Positions 7,839 through 29,473 of a stretch of DNA of 29,692 nt are shown here, piece after piece. The notes under the pieces were generated by a model. That model was not told the origin of the DNA. It did no database searches and saw only the letters and a program-made list of their open reading frames with translations. The translations under genes were made by a program, and so were the position numbers. The stretch comes from a virus, in IMG/VR virus record IMGVR_UViG_3300034163_000009, positions 1-29,692 of that record; one strand, given 5' to 3'. Within the stretch, counting starts at the first letter, position 1; each line of letters starts with the position of its first letter.

Positions 7839-8225
7839 ATGGCAGGTATTCTTGCGCTTGGACCAGGAGTTTCGCCTGGGTATCAGGCTCTTGTTGGAAA
7901 CGGTGTAATCAACCTGACTACACTGTCGCTCGCCACGCTTGGTGCTAACACAGGCGTAACCTTCCCGAACATCCCAGGCTCCACGCTAGTGGTAACCAAG
8001 ACAGTCACCGGCGACCCTCTCGCTACGATCCAGCCTGGAGCTACGATCCTAGGCTTCCAGGTTGCAGCTATTGGGTTTACGGAGGCAGTAGCGGGTAACC
8101 TGTACTTGCTCGGGCCGTTCTTTACGCTCGACGCGAACGCAGGTACTGGCCTGGTTCAAATCAACTTCGCGACGCCTGCAAACGTCGCCGGGATCGCCGT
8201 GCTCCAGTCCGGCGGCGTCTACTAG
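7839..8225 (+). CDS. duplicated beta-rich structural protein, copy 1 (128 aa)
   Basis: The protein begins MAGILALGPGVSPGYQ and ends GIAVLQSGGVY. It is clearly paralogous to the next gene: shared blocks include ILALGPGV, VGNGV-NLTTL, VTFPNIPG-TLV, KTVTGDP, GPFFTLD and QSGGVY. It is Gly/Ala/Val/Thr-rich with no charge clusters or membrane helix, in keeping with a virion surface or tail decoration protein. A good AGGAGG lies just upstream, inside the end of the basic protein gene. Position directly before the major tail protein suggests a tail or neck decoration role, which is inferred. Confidence 0.65.
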   Translation: MAGILALGPGVSPGYQALVGNGVINLTTLSLATLGANTGVTFPNIPGSTLVVTKTVTGDPLATIQPGATILGFQVAAIGFTEAVAGNLYLLGPFFTLDANAGTGLVQINFATPANVAGIAVLQSGGVY

Positions 8226-8243: not shown

Positions 8244-8624
8244 ATGACTATACTTGCCCTCGGGCCGGGTGTCGCAGGATATCAGCAGATGGTTGGGAAT
8301 GGTGTAGCCAACCTGACGACACTGTGTGTGACACCTCCAGGAGGTACTACCGCAGTAACGTTCCCAAACATCCCAGGCTTCACGCTGGTTGCGGTCAAGA
8401 CCGTTACAGGCGATCCAGGTCTCACGGTTCAGCCCGGCTCGACGATCCTCGGAGAGCAGGTAGCAGCACTCCCGTTCGCTGAGGCGCTGTTCCCGGATAC
8501 CTATATCCTCGGTCCGTTCTTCACGCTCGACGAGAACGTGGGAACGGCTCTTGTTCAGCTCAACATCACAACGCTCGCGAACTTGTCCGGGATCGGCGTG
8601 ATTCAGTCCGGCGGCGTTTACTAG
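8244..8624 (+). CDS. duplicated beta-rich structural protein, copy 2 (126 aa)
   Basis: Paralogue of the preceding gene in direct tandem, separated by 18 bases that hold CAGGAGGGAAACG as ribosome binding site. The central core (VTFPNIPGFTLVAVKTVTG) and the ends (TILALGPGV, VIQSGGVY) are conserved, while the N-terminal loop (CVTPPGGTTA) and the region before GPFFTLD have diverged. Third-position differences are many, so the duplication is not recent. Both copies keep full length, which implies that each is used, perhaps as two subunits of a mixed ring or decoration. Confidence 0.65.
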   Translation: MTILALGPGVAGYQQMVGNGVANLTTLCVTPPGGTTAVTFPNIPGFTLVAVKTVTGDPGLTVQPGSTILGEQVAALPFAEALFPDTYILGPFFTLDENVGTALVQLNITTLANLSGIGVIQSGGVY

Positions 8625-22978: not shown

Positions 22979-25597
22979 CTAATATACCTCCTGGAACATC
23001 GGCGGTTTCCATAGTACAAGCTCGACAGGCTCTGCTCGCTTGCCGTCTATCCAATCTTCGAACTCAATCATGTCGCCCCAGTTGCGACCGACTTCTACGT
23101 CCGTTATGAAAGGCACATAATCGCCGCATACCGAGTAAGCAGATTCGATCATGCGCTTACGCATCAGATTGCCTACGTACTCAACGTTGTCTTGATGCGT
23201 CTCGAAGTACAGAGCGTCATGAATGGTATTGCGACACCAAGCGGTACCTTTAAGTTCCGGGCGGAGCCAGGTGAAGGCCTGAAGGCATATGTCCGATCCG
23301 ATCGACTGCGGATAGAATGCCATTCCTTCGTTCTCGATTTCCTTCCGGTTCTCGTCGGTAATTAGATTGAACCGACGTCGGCGTCCGAAGGGTGAGATGA
23401 GATCGTCACCGTGCAAGGCAGCCCATTTAACCTTCTCACGGAATTCTACGATGCGAGGAATGACCCTAAAGAAGTCTCGATACATAGCCTGAGCGTCGCG
23501 AAGCGGAATGTCTAGTTCGTCGGCAATTGACTTAGCTTCTCTACCGTAGGCTAGACCGTACACGAACGCCTTAATAACGATCCGCTTGTCCTTCTTGGAT
23601 GCTGATGCTAGTCTGTACGAACGTTCTGGTCTGACGACTGGGAGCAACTCGGTGAACAAGTCACGAGAAGGATCCCGGAAGATCTCCGCGAAGTAAGGCT
23701 CTTGAGCTAGCCAGGTCAGCACGCGCAGTTCAAGCTGACCGTAGTCGGCGCCGATGAGAACATGATCAGGCTTGGCGACCTTGTACTGACGGCGTAGCTT
23801 GTCTCCTCGCGGGATGACTTGCAAGCTAGGCCTCTTCTGTGAAAGTCGACCGGTATTAGTACTATGTAGCATGATCGTTGGATAAACACGACCGCGATAA
23901 ACATACTTGCGGAGTCCTGAGACATAAGTCCCGTCCAACTTGCTGGCTTTACGGTGCTTCAACATCGTTTCAAGAAAGATAACGGCATGATCTTCGGTGT
24001 CAACTGCGACTACCTCAGGTCCGATAGCATTCGTGCTAGTATGATCGACCTTGCCTTGCAGAACGGTACGGTGCTTCTTCTTGCCCCGCTGATCCTTAGC
24101 TGCTTCGAACATTAGCATTAGGGCTTCGGCGTCGGTTGTCTCCGCCATGACACCCTTAGCGTTCTTCTTCTTGGGTATAGGAATGTGCAGGTCGCGCAGT
24201 ACATCCTTGACCTGCATCGGCGATCGCGGATTGAACTGGCCAACGATGCTGAACATGGCTTTTTCGTAGCCTGCTAGTTCAGCCTTGTACTCTTTCTGAA
24301 GCTGACGATTATAAGGCAGGTCGACCGCGAAGCCGTTTAGCTCGGTGTAGACAAAGTTCGTTGCGGCATCGCAGAGGAAGTCATGCAGGTGTCGTAGTCC
24401 CCAATACTCACCGTCAGCTCTAGGCCTGATGGGTGTGGGATGGAGTACGTCCTCCCGATCGATCTCTGCATCGAAGAAGTCATTGAGCTCCCATGTACAT
24501 ACAACATCGTAACCGTTGTAGCGATATAGGAGACGTCGAGGGATGTGTCCATAGTTACCGCCTTTGGGAATGTACTGAGACAGGAATTCATCATAGCGCG
24601 GCGCGCCTAGCTTTTCAATGGCATTGTATTTCAGGCCGTGAATGCCTCGTCTTTCATCGAGGACGTAAGACTTAAACATGGTATCTTGACTGATTTTCAG
24701 ATCAAGGAAACCGATGGGGTGTAGTCCACCTAGGTCGAACTTGCCGTTCTGCAGGATCAGTTCTGACTCTTTAAGCCAAGCAGCCAATTCGGTTAGAAAC
24801 TCTTTAGACTGGCATGCCTTCTCGCCAAAGACGATACCGACACCTTTCTGCACGCAGACACCTATGCATAGCATGCCGAAGTGATTAGCATGTTCATACG
24901 ATTTTTCCTTGTCTATGGCCACCTCTATGTCGACAACTACCTTACGAAACTTACGGCGCAGCACTTTAACAGCTAGTAGTGCTCCTCGCTCCGAATCGAG
25001 AATGCGAACTGTCGGCTCTTCCCACGGAGGCTGGTTAGTCACGAGCTTCTGGATGTCGTTTGCCATCGATGGGAAGGAAGCAGAAGACCGGAGACACGCA
25101 GCCGGATGGAAAGTGGGAATGATCTTTACGCCTGGAAGTTCTTCAGTTTCACGATACGGTCCAACACGGAGTGCTGTGATTCCTGTCTTAGTACGTAGCA
25201 GTGATTGCGCGGCTGAGTTTCCCATCGCCACGATACTCGTAACGCCGTGTTGCTTGAGCTCAGTCAATAGTCGATCGCGGCAGGATGATATGGCGGCTGG
25301 TGGCGGAGTAAAACTAGGGTTGTCTCTAGACGTGCAAAGGCAGGCATTGGTAATGAACATCTCGTCGCGCTTTAGATGAAACGCCTGCAGAGTTTTGTCT
25401 AGCAGCCTGCCTGAAGGACCTATGAATGGCCGACCGTACTTGATCTCGTTACGACCTGGATTCTGACCAACAAGGCCAATTTGAGCGCGGTCGGGTCCGA
25501 AGCTAGGTACGAATCCAAAGTCTGGAGTATTCAGCGGGCAGGTTTCACACTTGGCGAGAGGGTGTCGACGTTGCGACGTCGCGGCGACCTCAGTCAT
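22979..25597 (-). CDS. polA: uracil-DNA glycosylase domain fused to family A DNA polymerase (872 aa)
   Basis: Three parts in order. (1) Residues ~10-187, UDG superfamily: C17-x2-C20 and a later Cys pair (C86 or C88, C106) suit a 4Fe-4S cluster; motif 1 is G44-Q-N-P-G with R-P-F-I-G-P-S-G-R-L-L-D, and motif 2 is F-H164-P-A-A-C-L-R. (2) 3'-5' exonuclease, ~215-375: D223-I-E225, N284-G-K-F-D288, Y360-N-G-Y-D364. (3) Polymerase, ~400-840: motif A D618-Y-G-Q-L-E-L-R, motif B R672-x3-K676-x3-Y680-x3-Y684-G, motif C H793-D794-A795. It should replicate the phage genome with proofreading. Y680 is the T7-type tyrosine; Ala795 replaces the usual Glu. Confidence 0.9.
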   Translation of the reverse strand: MTEVAATSQRRHPLAKCETCPLNTPDFGFVPSFGPDRAQIGLVGQNPGRNEIKYGRPFIGPSGRLLDKTLQAFHLKRDEMFITNACLCTSRDNPSFTPPPAAISSCRDRLLTELKQHGVTSIVAMGNSAAQSLLRTKTGITALRVGPYRETEELPGVKIIPTFHPAACLRSSASFPSMANDIQKLVTNQPPWEEPTVRILDSERGALLAVKVLRRKFRKVVVDIEVAIDKEKSYEHANHFGMLCIGVCVQKGVGIVFGEKACQSKEFLTELAAWLKESELILQNGKFDLGGLHPIGFLDLKISQDTMFKSYVLDERRGIHGLKYNAIEKLGAPRYDEFLSQYIPKGGNYGHIPRRLLYRYNGYDVVCTWELNDFFDAEIDREDVLHPTPIRPRADGEYWGLRHLHDFLCDAATNFVYTELNGFAVDLPYNRQLQKEYKAELAGYEKAMFSIVGQFNPRSPMQVKDVLRDLHIPIPKKKNAKGVMAETTDAEALMLMFEAAKDQRGKKKHRTVLQGKVDHTSTNAIGPEVVAVDTEDHAVIFLETMLKHRKASKLDGTYVSGLRKYVYRGRVYPTIMLHSTNTGRLSQKRPSLQVIPRGDKLRRQYKVAKPDHVLIGADYGQLELRVLTWLAQEPYFAEIFRDPSRDLFTELLPVVRPERSYRLASASKKDKRIVIKAFVYGLAYGREAKSIADELDIPLRDAQAMYRDFFRVIPRIVEFREKVKWAALHGDDLISPFGRRRRFNLITDENRKEIENEGMAFYPQSIGSDICLQAFTWLRPELKGTAWCRNTIHDALYFETHQDNVEYVGNLMRKRMIESAYSVCGDYVPFITDVEVGRNWGDMIEFEDWIDGKRAEPVELVLWKPPMFQEVY

Positions 25598-25982: not shown

Positions 25983-26100
25983 CTTCCGCTCTATGTGGCG
26001 TGTCTTCTTGATGTTCGTTACGGATACAAGTCCGTTCAGTATCTTTGTATCGGACGCCGCAGTTTTCACCCCAGGTCAGCAGGTCTTCTAGCTTTCTCAG
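25927..26100 (-). CDS. putative acidic protein with CTG start (57 aa)
   Basis: This frame begins at CTG 26100-26098, which overlaps the upstream TGA as CTGA, and runs to TAA at 25929-25927. The peptide (LRKLEDLLTWGENCGVRYKD, then TERTCIRNEHQ, ending RPIRSTDEC) has regular charge and helix patterns that look more natural than the competing frame. CTG starts are rare, but the 4-nt overlap repeats the coupling seen at five other junctions here. It carries C14, C25 and C57 and has no recognised family. Confidence 0.4.
   Translation of the reverse strand: MRKLEDLLTWGENCGVRYKDTERTCIRNEHQEDTPHRAEDDFEWDYLGRPIRSTDEC
25937..25960. repeat. tandem palindromes, two copies of TCGGTCGACCG
   Basis: TCGGTCGACCG occurs at 25937-25947 and 25950-25960, two bases apart. 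Each contains the 10-bp palindrome CGGTCGACCG, so the pair repeats with a 13-bp period. This is an operator-like arrangement, although it lies within coding sequence of the minus-strand operon. Confidence 0.7.
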
Positions 26101-26396
26101 TAGGGCGCTCCATGATTCGAATTAGTTGGTAGGTCGCTTCCTATAACGCGCCGGACTTCCTCCTCAAGCTGCTTGACACGCTCGGCTGCGAAGGTGTACA
26201 CCTTGCGCATATCGTCGAGCTCGGACTCTCCAGGCTTGCGACCCATACGGAGCAGGTATGCTACCATTGAACCACGCCAGTAGTCTAGGTCGAATTCCTT
26301 GATTACGGTCCACGCATTTAGACCGCCATCTGTCTGGTAGTAATCAGGATGGTGCAATGCTGGAGTAAGACCGTCTGGAATAATAGGTTTACTCAC
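26097..26396 (-). CDS. DUF3310 family protein (99 aa)
   Basis: The GTG at 26396 overlaps the dpdA stop (GTGA) and has GAAAGGTGG upstream; a longer frame from 26429 lies inside dpdA. The signature is H-H-P-D-Y-Y-Q-T-D-G-G-L-N-A-W-T-V-I-K-E-F, then D-L-D-Y-W-R-G-S-M-V-A-Y-L-L-R-M-G-R-K-P and L-D-D-M-R-K-V, the hallmark 'hPdYY...gie.idvi..f.l....gn.iKYl.R.grK....eDL.Ka' of DUF3310. These small phage proteins are common near nucleotide-metabolism genes; their biochemical role is not settled. The C-terminal half is helical. Confidence 0.75.
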   Translation of the reverse strand: MSKPIIPDGLTPALHHPDYYQTDGGLNAWTVIKEFDLDYWRGSMVAYLLRMGRKPGESELDDMRKVYTFAAERVKQLEEEVRRVIGSDLPTNSNHGAPY

Positions 26397-27241
26397 TTGG
26401 TCCACCTTTCGATTGGAGTACGCCCCCACTCGTCGAGCATACGAATGTTTTGCTCCAGTAGGTTGCGGTTGGGAAAATCTTCCGAAGTGAGCTGAAAGTA
26501 GTTATCTGGTCTAGGAACCTTGGTGATTCCAATACCCTGGATCGAATATCCAGCATGTGCGAATGAGAATGGCGCGATCGTGTCTAGGCTTCGGATCAGT
26601 CCAGGAACCGATGCACAGTGTTGCAACTCTGTGGGCCATTGGTCACTAAGTCCAAGCAGGTGGATATCGTATCGATGACCGTAGCGACGCTTGATCTCGA
26701 GCGCGAGTTCGAAACGGGCTGTAGGATTACAGGTCTTGTAGCACACTGTCCTGCTGATAGAGATAGTCTTGACCTGGCGAGCTACATCCTGTGTATTCAG
26801 TTCTCCTACGAACGCAATAGCTTCGCGTAGGGTTCGTCCGTGAGCTACAGCTGCGATACGCGGCTTGGTATCATAGCGGAATTGAGGGTGAGCCGTATCC
26901 TGAAGTATCCCTAGGAACTCTGTGGTGAGCTCTAGCGTTCCGTATGCATCATAGAGGATATCTGGAGCAACAAGTTCAGTGGCTCCATATCGAGCGGCTA
27001 CGCGAATGAGATCTGTCGGTGCTAGACGATCTCCTTCCCATGCGCCGTTATCCAGTAGCCATTGGGCACTGAGATTCTTCCAAGCATGGTTGTAGAACTC
27101 GACATAATCTGGATTCGGTCCTGCGGTTCCGTTGTTATGGACCAGCTCGCCTGCGAGAGCCATCTGGAACAGTCTGCCCTCGCAGTACTGTGCAGCGAGT
27201 GCTCCGGGTGGAATGAGCGCGATCTCGATAGGTACGGTCAT
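26393..27241 (-). CDS. dpdA: DpdA-type (TGT-like) DNA 7-deazaguanine transglycosylase (282 aa)
   Basis: TGT-fold features: L63-D-N-G-A-W-E-G, typical of DpdA-type proteins; V-A-P-D94 in the position of the general acid/base Asp of tRNA-guanine transglycosylases; H194-L-L-G-L before an S-D-Q-W-P loop; and R-S-L-D220-T near the expected nucleophile. It lacks the Cys-x-Cys-x2-Cys zinc site at its C-terminus, unlike bacterial TGT, as is common for phage DpdA. In a phage operon with folE and queD, it should exchange guanine in DNA for a preQ0-derived base rather than act on tRNA. Start ATGA overlaps the preceding stop. Which modified base is made cannot be read here. Confidence 0.75.
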   Translation of the reverse strand: MTVPIEIALIPPGALAAQYCEGRLFQMALAGELVHNNGTAGPNPDYVEFYNHAWKNLSAQWLLDNGAWEGDRLAPTDLIRVAARYGATELVAPDILYDAYGTLELTTEFLGILQDTAHPQFRYDTKPRIAAVAHGRTLREAIAFVGELNTQDVARQVKTISISRTVCYKTCNPTARFELALEIKRRYGHRYDIHLLGLSDQWPTELQHCASVPGLIRSLDTIAPFSFAHAGYSIQGIGITKVPRPDNYFQLTSEDFPNRNLLEQNIRMLDEWGRTPIERWTK

Positions 27242-27426
27242 TGGATTAGCTCCAGCGTAGGGTCAGGAAGATGTACGGTTTGGCCGAAGTCTGTGAAGGA
27301 GCAGTTCAGGTCGAAGCGTAGGATTTCGGTCATGCCATCAGCAGCTACACCGACGAGGTACAGCTTAACCGGAAACGGTGCAGGTGGCGGCGGCGGTTCT
27401 GGAGGTTGTACTGGCCTGATTCTCAT
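27238..27426 (-). CDS. small proline-rich protein (62 aa)
   Basis: The N-terminus is M-R-I-R-P-V-Q-P-P-E-P-P-P-P-P-A-P-F-P-V, a run of prolines, followed by a compact beta-like part (V-K-L-Y-L-V-G-V-A-A-D-G, then I-L-R-F-D-L-N-C-S-F). Both ends use ATGA overlaps, with the DUF2829 gene upstream and dpdA downstream, so it is tightly coupled in translation. No family is recognised. Being sandwiched directly before dpdA suggests a link to DNA modification, but that is only context. Confidence 0.6.
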   Translation of the reverse strand: MRIRPVQPPEPPPPPAPFPVKLYLVGVAADGMTEILRFDLNCSFTDFGQTVHLPDPTLELIQ

Positions 27427-27659
27427 GATGCGTCCTCAATTACTTCCCAGTCAGTGGCTGCAACGTCCTGGGCCGTGAAGTGGAAGTGTTCCCCTCCGCG
27501 AGGCTGACCTAGTCCTCGCTTGCCAACCTGAGTTTCGTCATGTATCAGGTATTCACCTAGACTATAGAAGTTGTGAACGAGGACCATACCTGACGGCCAG
27601 GCTTCGCGGCGAACCGTAAATCCATCGAACGTCTTCTCGAAAGCTTCGGCTAGGGTCAT
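27423..27659 (-). CDS. DUF2829 family, Tad2-like protein (78 aa)
   Basis: The frame shows M-T-L-A-E-A-F-E-K-T-F-D-G-F-T-V-R-R-E-A-W-P and ends with D-V-A-A-T-D-W-E-V-I-E-D. These two blocks (a leading helix followed by '(t/v)xRexW', and a closing 'D..A.DWev') define DUF2829. Members include Tad2, which binds cyclic-ADP-ribose-type signals and disarms Thoeris defence. Length is near the family norm. It overlaps folE by ATGA and the proline-rich gene by ATGA. Ligand binding is not tested here; the family name is from motif recognition. Confidence 0.6.
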   Translation of the reverse strand: MTLAEAFEKTFDGFTVRREAWPSGMVLVHNFYSLGEYLIHDETQVGKRGLGQPRGGEHFHFTAQDVAATDWEVIEDAS

Positions 27660-28273
27660 GTCAGGCCAATCAGACGGAGGAACTCGTCCTTGGTTCCTCG
27701 CTCGTTGGTGTAGAAGACGCCCCGAACAGCACTAGTGATCGTTTCGGCTTCGTGCGCCAGAGCACCTCTAAGACTCATGCAGGAATGATGTGCACGCATT
27801 ACGATGATCACACCAGACGGTGTGAGAATGTCGTCGAACGTGTCGGCTATAGCTGTGGTTAGCTCTTCTTGAACTGATGGCGTTCTAGCTATAGTCTGGA
27901 TCTGTCGAGCTATCTTGGATAGACCTGCGATGACTCCGTCAGGAATATAGCCTACGTGGCATACGCCTGTGTAAGGCGCGAGATGGTGTGAGCACATACT
28001 TACGAAACGGATCTGCTTGACGATGACCATCTCGTGGGCGTCTGACTTGAATACCGTGAATTTCCAGTGTTCACTGGCATCGGTCAGCTCTTTCATCATC
28101 TTGACGAAACGGCGCGGCGTCTCGCGAACGTCTTCGCCATCCCAGTCGAAGTCCGGCATGACCTTGTTTAGGAGCAAGTACATCAAGGTCTCAGGGGCGG
28201 CTGCCTCTAGGTCTATGACGTTGCGGCCCGTGACTGAATCGCGATAAGGAAGGCCGTCAGGTTCGAATGGCAT
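27656..28273 (-). CDS. folE: GTP cyclohydrolase I (205 aa)
   Basis: Converts GTP to dihydroneopterin triphosphate, the first step toward 7-deazaguanines. Zinc and catalytic residues are present: S-M-C94-S-H96-H97-L-A-P-Y-T-G and A-H162-H163-S-C165-M-S-L-R-G. The core motif G-L-S-K-I-A-R-Q-I and S-V-Q-E-E-L-T are intact. Cys-Ser-His-His replaces the more usual Cys-Glu-His-His, a mild variant. Start ATG lies 12 bases after queD's stop, and its stop overlaps the DUF2829 start. The length is close to other GTP cyclohydrolase I proteins. Phages carry this gene to feed their own DNA modification. Confidence 0.9.
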   Translation of the reverse strand: MPFEPDGLPYRDSVTGRNVIDLEAAAPETLMYLLLNKVMPDFDWDGEDVRETPRRFVKMMKELTDASEHWKFTVFKSDAHEMVIVKQIRFVSMCSHHLAPYTGVCHVGYIPDGVIAGLSKIARQIQTIARTPSVQEELTTAIADTFDDILTPSGVIIVMRAHHSCMSLRGALAHEAETITSAVRGVFYTNERGTKDEFLRLIGLT

Positions 28274-28285
28274 CAGAAGTCGTTC

Positions 28286-28765
28286 CTAGCTCGCCAACGA
28301 CGGATACCTGAGGCTGAACAGGGCTTGCTGTAGCCGAACGCGATCAGGGTTGCGTTCGGGTTCGGATGCTAGTGACTCGAGTACATCTAGTACCATATCG
28401 AGCGGCGGTAGCGAATGCGGTGCGAACCATGCAGTCGTGTTGCCAGTCTCGCTGACACGTACAGCGGTGACCTCAGAGAACATGGACACCGCGCGGTTGT
28501 AGATAAACTGGGCCATGAGCTCAGCAGTCGGCTGAGACACAACTGAGTTGACTACTTGATGGTCGAACGTATTGTCGAGCCACGTCTTGAACTGTCCGAG
28601 TTCACCGTAGTCACGCACGAAGCCTACCTGGTCGAGCATCGGCCCCTCAAGGAACAGCTCAACCTCGTAGTTATGACCATGCATACGACCGCATGGATGA
28701 CCTTGTGCGAGACCATCTAGTCGATGCGCGGCGGAAAAGGCGAACTTCTTACTGATGCGGTACAT
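28286..28765 (-). CDS. queD: 6-carboxy-tetrahydropterin synthase (159 aa)
   Basis: Makes 6-carboxy-5,6,7,8-tetrahydropterin from dihydroneopterin triphosphate, the second step toward preQ0. Zinc histidines H14 (S-A-A-H-R-L), H29 and H31 (G-R-M-H-G-H-N-Y-E-V) and the catalytic Cys25 (H-P-C-G-R) are present, as are F-V-R-D-Y-G-E-L, F-D-H69 and S-E106-T-G-N-T. Leader AAGGTGAAGTAATTA before ATG carries the ribosome binding site. The gene is followed immediately by folE. QueE and QueC, needed for the next steps, are not in this window. Confidence 0.9.
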   Translation of the reverse strand: MYRISKKFAFSAAHRLDGLAQGHPCGRMHGHNYEVELFLEGPMLDQVGFVRDYGELGQFKTWLDNTFDHQVVNSVVSQPTAELMAQFIYNRAVSMFSEVTAVRVSETGNTTAWFAPHSLPPLDMVLDVLESLASEPERNPDRVRLQQALFSLRYPSLAS

Positions 28766-28921: not shown

Positions 28922-29473
28922 CTAGAACGGAGGCTCTTCAGTCACTGGAGCGCCCTTGTGTGCCGTCTCAGGGTCGTAGACCGCGAAGCCGCGGACCTCG
29001 ACCCAGCGTTCCGGCATGTCGGGGAACTTCTCCTTCTGCTTCTTGTTCTGGCCGCGCCGGATGAACAGCTCCTGTCCTTCGTAGTATTCCGGCTCGGTCG
29101 GGACGTCCAGCTCGAGAATCGGCTTGCCCTCGGCGTTGACTCGGCCGGTGGGCTTCATGTGGTCCTCGTAGGCGTTCTTCTTACCCTCTTGCGAAGGCAG
29201 TGCCTTGAGGATGCCGACGATGGTGTAGAGCGCACCGTCCCAGAGGCAGGCACGAGTCCAGTCGTGGCGGTTGGCGTACTTCTGCCACGTGCCCGGCGAG
29301 TCCTGCACCATGAACTCGAAGGTCAGCATTGGCTCGCCAGGGTGAGCTTCGGACTGCGACTCTTCCAGCTCCACGCCGATGATCGAGACGTGGTACTTCC
29401 CGATTGGCATCGCATCGAAGTTGCGTTCGCCTGAGCTAGCCTCTTGTTCGCTTACGTTTACCTTGATGCCCAT
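28922..29473 (-). CDS. putative ssDNA-binding protein, DUF669-like (183 aa)
   Basis: The N-terminus (M-G-I-K-V-N-V-S-E-Q-E-A-S-S-G, then M-P-I-G-K-Y-H-V-S-I-I-G-V-E-L) and the Trp/Arg-rich middle (Y-A-N-R-H-D-W-T-R-A-C-L-W-D-G-A-L) have a single-domain DUF669-like look, with a lysine-rich segment R-G-Q-N-K-K-Q-K-E-K. It ends E-E-P-P-F, resembling the acidic 'DDIPF' tip of bacterial SSB that recruits partner proteins. Located in the replication operon just upstream of the leader of queD, it is probably the phage's ssDNA-binding protein. GAAAGAGAAAC precedes the ATG. Confidence 0.6.
   Translation of the reverse strand: MGIKVNVSEQEASSGERNFDAMPIGKYHVSIIGVELEESQSEAHPGEPMLTFEFMVQDSPGTWQKYANRHDWTRACLWDGALYTIVGILKALPSQEGKKNAYEDHMKPTGRVNAEGKPILELDVPTEPEYYEGQELFIRRGQNKKQKEKFPDMPERWVEVRGFAVYDPETAHKGAPVTEEPPF

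What the first reader, a model, noticed from the sequence alone, without database searches (positions are those of the whole stretch)
27423..28765. 7-deazaguanine genes with a Tad2-like gene embedded between them
queD, folE, a DUF2829 gene, a proline-rich gene and dpdA lie in one translationally coupled block. FolE and QueD feed a preQ0-type base that DpdA places into DNA, which shields phage DNA from host restriction. DUF2829 includes Tad2, which sequesters signals of Thoeris defence. A gene of that family sitting between folE and dpdA suggests one operon that pairs DNA masking with suppression of a separate defence. QueC and QueE are not here.
Basis: partly seen in the sequence, partly recalled or inferred. 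Interest (0 to 1): 0.7.

Follow-up and report, generated by a model that had tools for sequence, protein, structure and literature searches.

The report
Phage DNA-masking operon with swappable gene slot
An uncultivated phage carries genes that disguise its DNA with a modified guanine, and between two of them sits a position where related phages swap small genes; here it holds a distant relative of the Tad2 proteins that soak up bacterial alarm molecules, but the parts that line the Tad2 pocket have changed, so that role is plausible and unproven.

Summary
queD, folE, a 78-residue DUF2829/Tad2-like gene, a proline-rich gene and dpdA run on the minus strand, with 4-base overlaps from folE to dpdA. 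FolE and QueD match their families. The dpdA product models as a TGT fold, and its best structural match is the DNA preQ0 insertase DpdA. QueC and QueE are missing only because the contig ends: relatives with the same gene order carry both. With no QueF or amidotransferase found, dPreQ0 is the likely product.

The 78-residue protein passes the Pfam Tad2-like cut-off narrowly (27.9 against 25 bits; eight Tad2-like genes of named phages score 78-90), and its model matches only Tad2/AcrIIA7 structures. Both pocket-forming motifs are altered, so sequestration of a Thoeris signal is untested.

Among 13 related operons the folE-dpdA junction is an exchangeable cargo slot: empty in six, Tad2-like in two, other small genes (deoxyribosyltransferase, DUF3310, DUF1599-like) in five. 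In near-identical phages the slot gene is swapped at exact gene boundaries. Phages nt-1 and KVP40 already carry both functions, far apart. This is a new variant of a known kind, of moderate interest.

The parts
28286..28765 (-). queD: 6-carboxy-tetrahydropterin synthase (QueD/PTPS family), 159 aa
   Evidence: PF01242 90.2 bits; TIGR03367 queuosine_QueD 80.6 bits, below its cut-off of 89.25; PHROG QueD-like 71.7 bits; C-x3-H-G-H motif visible in the translation
27656..28273 (-). folE: GTP cyclohydrolase I, 205 aa
   Evidence: PF01227 172.5 bits; NF006826 172.3 bits, over its cut-off of 162; 82% identical to FolE of L006
27423..27659 (-). DUF2829/Tad2-like gene, 78 aa, in the folE-dpdA slot
   Evidence: PF11195 27.9 bits, cut-off 25; homologue P0006 at the same site in L005/L028; model matches only Tad2/AcrIIA7 entries, Z 6.2-6.7, mean pLDDT 69
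27238..27426 (-). proline-rich small gene, 62 aa, unknown; second gene of the slot cargo
   Evidence: open frame with 4-base overlaps on both sides and a GAGG shortly before its ATG; no family match
26393..27241 (-). dpdA: TGT-fold DNA guanine transglycosylase, 282 aa
   Evidence: model pLDDT 88.5; best match 7ui4 DNA preQ0 insertase DpdA, Z 16.4, 242 aligned, 18% identity, then TGT structures; LDNGxWE, PD and SxD conserved among relatives
26097..26429 (-). DUF3310-like gene that follows dpdA and overlaps its 3' end (start uncertain); conserved in the nearest part of the lineage
   Evidence: PF11753 15.7 bits, under cut-off; PHROG 'nucleotide kinase' family 37.2 bits; same position in the seven closest relatives
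28922..29473 (-). SSB-like (DUF669) gene upstream of queD, part of the conserved replication/modification block
   Evidence: PHROG ssDNA-binding protein 25.5 bits; PF05037 20.5 bits, just under cut-off; same position in relatives
22979..25597 (-). uracil-DNA glycosylase (family 4) fused to DNA polymerase A; downstream end of the block
   Evidence: UDG_fam4 108.5 bits on residues 17-186 and Pol I 195 bits on residues 540-843; same gene downstream of dpdA in relatives

Best explanation
This is a phage 7-deazaguanine (probably dPreQ0) DNA-modification operon with an exchangeable accessory-gene slot at the folE/dpdA junction. FolE and QueD, with QueC and QueE probably encoded just beyond the contig end, make preQ0, and DpdA swaps it for guanine in phage DNA so that host restriction enzymes cut less. 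In this phage the slot carries a highly divergent DUF2829/Tad2-fold protein and a small proline-rich protein, probably translated together with the modification enzymes through 4-base overlaps. The most likely job of the Tad2-like protein is to bind and hold a small nucleotide-derived molecule, most simply an immune signal, as other members do. Shown by sequence or model: gene content, order, DpdA fold, slot turnover, distant Tad2 homology. Inferred: preQ0 in DNA, restriction protection, oligomer assembly, ligand, and the defence that is countered. The confidence given is for the whole statement including the signal-sponge step; the operon-with-slot part alone I hold at about 0.9.
For: Family matches for FolE, QueD and Tad2-like. 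DpdA model: top structural match 7ui4 DNA preQ0 insertase, then TGT. Relatives with the same SSB-queD-folE-[slot]-dpdA-polA order; QueC and a QueE with a CxxxCxxC radical-SAM motif in longer ones; no QueF above cut-off and no GATase_6 in six records including three of 77-79 kb, which by PMC6884629 predicts dPreQ0. Cultured phages Youna2 and BSTP12 share the order. Slot: Tad2-like in window and L005/L028, different genes in L030 and L032-L035, none in six others; L034/L035 differ by a clean gene swap (folE 98.8%, dpdA 93.8% identical, slot gene unrelated), L026/L028 by a clean one-gene insertion; two changes of state on the tree. Tad2 link: Pfam above cut-off, N-terminal profile match E 6e-4 against 0.66 for the neighbouring gene as control, model matching only Tad2/AcrIIA7 entries.
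Against: The Tad2-like protein scores 27.9 bits where eight Tad2-like genes of named phages score 78-90. The four distinct Tad2/AcrIIA7 proteins of solved structures whose sequence could be read, and all 20 viral Tad2 rows added to alignment A4, have W-N-G where this one has W-P-S-G, and the W and S of the C-terminal motif are F and T here. Its model is of modest confidence (pLDDT 69) and was built with canonical Tad2 rows in the alignment, so the fold match is partly built in; Foldseek alone gave E 0.33. The homologue P0006 scores under the cut-off (18 bits, N-terminal half only). Other slot genes look like nucleotide metabolism rather than counter-defence. No host is known, so presence of Thoeris or CBASS cannot be checked.
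Confidence: 0.45

Rival explanations
1. Metabolic accessory: the slot collects genes that tune nucleotide or deazaguanine supply, and the DUF2829 protein here binds a pathway compound (a GTP- or preQ0-type molecule) or helps FolE/DpdA; the sponge fold is used for metabolism, not for counter-defence.
For: Other slot occupants resemble a nucleoside 2-deoxyribosyltransferase (PF05014, 30.8 bits), DUF3310 (54.9 bits), a DUF1599-like protein (weak, E 0.19) and, in BSTP12, a thymidylate-kinase-like protein. The Tad2 pocket motifs are altered. The gene is embedded between a GTP-consuming enzyme and the base-inserting enzyme.
Against: The gene is absent from most related operons that keep folE and dpdA intact, so it is not needed for the modification. 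No DUF2829 protein with such a role came up in the papers searched.
Confidence: 0.25
2. Chance cargo: the folE/dpdA junction is a neutral landing site for small genes; the Tad2-like gene has some function (counter-defence against another system, such as CRISPR as claimed for AcrIIA7, or none) unrelated to its neighbours.
For: Slot contents change between near-identical phages; occupancy is patchy on the tree; none of 80 viral Tad2 loci has FolE, QueD, QueC, QueE or DpdA within 8 kb; a DUF2829 protein of solved structure is annotated as a type II CRISPR inhibitor.
Against: The same family occupies the same slot in two branches, and the gene keeps exact translational overlaps.
Confidence: 0.25
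3. The 78-aa protein is not a Tad2 relative at all: the match rests on a short N-terminal helix-strand motif and a generic DW ending.
For: Score only 2.9 bits over the cut-off; hhalign aligns only residues 1-27; Foldseek E 0.33.
Against: Full-length Pfam match 1-74 to 1-73 with E 3.4e-6; F-x-x-T-x-x-D-V-x-A-x-D-W lines up with W-x-x-S-x-x-D-V-L-A-x-D-W; all listed VIA matches are Tad2/AcrIIA7.
Confidence: 0.05

Closest known systems
Phage preQ0/archaeosine DNA-modification clusters (CAjan, Rosebush, 9g, nt-1; PMC6884629)
   Same: FolE, QueD, QueE, QueC and a TGT-fold DpdA; the set without an amidotransferase gives dPreQ0 in CAjan and Rosebush
   Different: This DpdA is short (282 aa) and missed by Pfam and NCBIfam; folE and dpdA flank an exchangeable slot
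Weizmannia phage Youna2 and Bacillus phage BSTP12 (cultured)
   Same: queC-queD-folE-[small genes]-dpdA-like-PolA order; DpdA-like protein 24-28% identical
   Different: No PF11195 gene anywhere in either genome; their dpdA-like genes are annotated as a hypothetical protein and as a NadR-like protein
SPO1 Tad2 (gp34.65; PDB 8sme, 8smf), ModTad2 (9eib), HgmTad2/AcrIIA7 (8kbi)
   Same: PF11195 family; same predicted helix-strand order; R, W, G, D, A and DW positions kept
   Different: 23-25% identity in the structural alignment; GWNGK loop replaced by AWPSGM, W and S of the C-terminal motif replaced by F and T, middle region shorter
Vibrio phages nt-1 and KVP40
   Same: Both a 7-deazaguanine pathway (FolE, QueC) and a canonical PF11195 gene in one genome
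   Different: There the two are far apart (nt-1: PF11195 at 76.6 kb, folE at 237 kb; KVP40: 160 kb against 71 kb), although in KVP40 the gene lies about 5.5 kb from a QueE-like gene

Membership tests
Phage 7-deazaguanine DNA-modification operon | FolE and QueD present with family-level matches | tested here: met
   PF01227 172.5 bits, PF01242 90.2 bits
Phage 7-deazaguanine DNA-modification operon | DpdA with TGT fold and conserved TGT-type aspartates | tested here: met
   Z 16.4 to 7ui4 DpdA, then TGT; LDNG and SxD motifs conserved; assignment of these aspartates to the TGT catalytic pair is from general knowledge
Phage 7-deazaguanine DNA-modification operon | QueC and QueE present in the phage | tested here: inconclusive
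   Absent from the 29.7-kb fragment; present in relatives G002, G003 and G004 upstream of the same block
Phage 7-deazaguanine DNA-modification operon | 7-deazaguanine in virion DNA | not testable with these tools
   needs LC-MS of phage DNA
Tad2 (DUF2829, PF11195) | Pfam match above the curated cut-off | tested here: met
   27.9 bits against 25, narrowly
Tad2 (DUF2829, PF11195) | Tad2 fold of the protomer | tested here: inconclusive
   VIA Z 6.2-6.7, rmsd 1.9-3.6 A over 57-63 residues, only Tad2/AcrIIA7 listed, but pLDDT 69 and canonical Tad2 rows in the input alignment
Tad2 (DUF2829, PF11195) | Pocket-loop motifs common to characterised members: GWNGK and W-x-x-S-x-x-D-x-L-A-x-D-W | tested here: not met
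   AWPSGM and F-x-x-T-x-x-D-V-A-A-x-D-W; partial conservation
Tad2 (DUF2829, PF11195) | Tetramer that binds gcADPR, His-ADPR or cyclic dinucleotides and blocks Thoeris/CBASS | not testable with these tools
   needs protein binding and phage assays

The most novel reading that the evidence does not exclude
The folE/dpdA junction is a counter-defence cargo slot inside a DNA-modification operon, and the divergent Tad2-fold protein there has shifted to a new ligand (another immune signal, or a deazaguanine/GTP-derived compound), so that DNA masking and signal capture are expressed as one unit.
Probability: 0.2. Interest if true: 0.65.

Novelty: new variant of a known kind. Interest (0 to 1): 0.42.

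Why it matters
If true, one phage transcript would carry both a passive shield (modified DNA) and an active signal sponge, and its folE/dpdA junction would be a place to look for unknown counter-defence or nucleotide-metabolism genes across a whole phage lineage. The exact gene swaps between near-identical phages also show how small accessory genes enter tightly coupled operons without breaking them. A DUF2829 protein with altered pocket motifs is a useful test of how far Tad2 ligand specificity can shift.

Tried and rejected
Close relatives of the 78-aa protein in viral contigs, in the phage collection at E 0.01 and E 10 and of P0006: none convincing. A two-row profile (A2) gave only the L005/L028 contig. 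A DNA pattern for RxxWPSGxVLVH gave L005's contig and one chance match, L134, without any operon gene. PDB by sequence: no hit for P0001 alone; the A2 profile gives Tad2 only at E 0.5. DpdA relatives in bacterial genomes, sought to identify a host: none. Tad2-like genes elsewhere in 22 related or DpdA-bearing records: none besides the slot gene of G004. General linkage of Tad2 to 7-deazaguanine genes: none in 80 loci with up to 8 kb on each side, a set biased towards WNG-type members. Slot genes of Youna2 and BSTP12 tested as Tad2: no. QueF and GATase_6 in the long relatives: none above cut-off; the weak QueF hit in G013 appears to be its FolE, a related T-fold protein. No paper in the library holds both Tad2 and DpdA, so no prior report of the pairing was found there; that library lacks most subscription journals, and the primary Tad2 structure paper was not readable, so exact ligand-contact residues could not be checked.

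Full report
What is there. The window is a 29,692-bp IMG/VR virus record. On its minus strand, read right to left, lie an SSB-like gene (28922-29473), queD (28286-28765), folE (27656-28273), a 78-codon gene (27423-27659), a 62-codon proline-rich gene (27238-27426), dpdA (26393-27241), a DUF3310-like gene and, further on, a uracil-DNA-glycosylase/DNA polymerase A fusion (22979-25597). queD and folE are 12 bases apart; folE to dpdA is joined by three 4-base stop/start overlaps. The 78-codon frame has the same codon-position GC pattern as its neighbours.

The modification operon. FolE and QueD match their families strongly. The putative DpdA has no useful match in Pfam, NCBIfam or PADLOC. An AlphaFold2 model from 16 relatives (pLDDT 88.5) finds tRNA-guanine transglycosylases by Foldseek and, by VIA-align, the crystal structure of the DNA preQ0 insertase DpdA (7ui4) as the first of many tied TGT-fold matches (Z 16.4, rmsd 4.3 A over 242 residues, 18% identity). 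LDNGxWE, PD and SxD are conserved among the relatives; they resemble the TGT aspartate motifs (general knowledge). Relatives in viral contigs keep the order SSB-queD-folE-dpdA-polA, and the long ones have QueC and a radical-SAM QueE a few kilobases upstream of queD. In G002, queC starts about 4.7 kb upstream of folE, whereas the window ends 1.4 kb upstream of it, so their absence is best read as a contig-end effect. No QueF above cut-off and no GATase_6 was found in six records. [quoted passage not shown] That is inference. Two cultured phages, Youna2 and BSTP12, have the same arrangement with the dpdA-like gene unrecognised.

The Tad2-like gene. PF11195 matches the whole 78-aa protein at 27.9 bits (cut-off 25, E 3.4e-6). 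Eight PF11195 genes in named phages, among them SPO1 Tad2, score 78-90 bits. In an alignment of SPO1 Tad2 with seven phage homologues, R22, G24, W25, N26, G27, W73, S76, D79, L81, A82, D84 and W85 are invariant; the Tad2 and AcrIIA7 sequences of solved structures that could be read carry the same loop. The window protein keeps R18, W21, G24, D65, A68, D70 and W71 but has A20 and P22-S23 for the G and N around W21, F59 for W73, T62 for S76 and A67 for L81. A review describes the SPO1 pocket as built from the beta1-beta2 loop, the beta3-beta4 loop, strand beta4, the beta4-alpha3 loop and helix alpha3 (PMC12043709); placing the changed residues in those regions is my mapping, and exact ligand contacts could not be checked. 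The model is of modest confidence (pLDDT 69) and was built with canonical Tad2 rows, so its exclusive matching to Tad2/AcrIIA7 entries (Z 6.2-6.7) supports the family but is not independent. Foldseek alone gives E 0.33. Verdict: a real but distant DUF2829 member with altered pocket motifs; the ligand is unknown. Known members already differ in ligand: SPO1 Tad2 binds gcADPR and ModTad2 binds His-ADPR (PMC13299392), and Tad2 proteins are reported to bind cyclic dinucleotides (PMC12043709) while SPO1 Tad2 did not bind 3'3'-cGAMP in another study (PMC11722364).

The slot. Across 13 operons of this lineage the folE/dpdA junction is variable. It is empty in L026, L006, L009, L029, L031 and L012; it holds a Tad2-like gene in the window and in L028 (same contig as L005); a 53-aa unknown in L030; a 139-aa unknown in L032; a DUF1599-like protein (weak) in L033; a nucleoside 2-deoxyribosyltransferase-like protein in L034; and DUF3310 in L035. 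L034 and L035 are near-identical phages (folE 98.8%, dpdA 93.8%, polA 97.1%) whose slot genes are unrelated between shared ends. L026 and L028 (folE 85%, dpdA 86%) differ by exactly one gene between the folE stop and the dpdA start. On a tree of FolE, DpdA and QueD the Tad2-like state needs two changes, and supported branches force both; the window's nearest relative, L006, is empty. The two Tad2-like proteins align at 46% over their first 41 residues while the flanking FolE and DpdA are 73% and 65% identical. So the gene is accessory cargo, gained or lost at least twice.

Is the pairing new? At genome level, no: phages nt-1 and KVP40 already hold both a 7-deazaguanine pathway and a canonical DUF2829 gene, tens of kilobases apart, with a QueE-like gene about 5.5 kb from DUF2829 in KVP40. 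Of 80 viral Tad2 loci, none has 7-deazaguanine genes within 8 kb, although that set is biased towards WNG-type members. The embedded placement looks rare, and no paper in the searched library mentions Tad2 together with DpdA.

How it most likely works. FolE, QueD, QueE and QueC make preQ0 and DpdA exchanges it for guanine in phage DNA (pathway known; inferred here). Translational overlap would express the slot proteins with the enzymes. The Tad2-like protein would hold a nucleotide-derived compound, most simply an immune signal. The main rival is a metabolic accessory role, suggested by the nucleotide-metabolism flavour of other slot genes; the other is unrelated cargo. I give about 0.45, 0.25 and 0.25.

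Noticed in passing
L034 6582-7001 and L035 6708-7001 (folE-dpdA junction): Two near-identical phage contigs have unrelated genes (nucleoside 2-deoxyribosyltransferase-like and DUF3310) swapped between identical ends, which share the last codons ESERGQ.
   Followed up: yes
window 22979-25597, and Bacillus/Weizmannia phage relatives: Family-4 uracil-DNA glycosylase domain fused to a family A DNA polymerase, next to dpdA in this lineage.
   Followed up: partly
L003 7497-10931 and L026 8515-11919: The UDG-PolA gene of this relative carries a large in-frame insertion after FHPAAC with intein-like sequence; L032 shows a similar split in its PolA match.
   Followed up: no
L034 5175-5384: DUF397 gene (PF04149, 79.9 bits), a family that I know mainly from actinomycetes, between SSB and queD; hints at an actinobacterial host for part of the lineage.
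   Followed up: no
window 7839-8225 and 8244-8624: Two similar adjacent small proteins (128 and 126 aa), apparently a tandem duplication in the tail region.
   Followed up: no
OM293949.1 (L051 5884-6654) and MW354678.1 (L132 5818-6606): DpdA-like genes of Weizmannia phage Youna2 and Bacillus phage BSTP12 are annotated as a hypothetical protein and as a NadR-like protein.
   Followed up: partly
NC_005083.2 153732-160372 (L136): KVP40 has a DUF2829 (Tad2-like) gene directly after asiA and about 5.5 kb from a QueE-like gene; ValKK3 and K575 have the same anti-sigma factor neighbour.
   Followed up: partly
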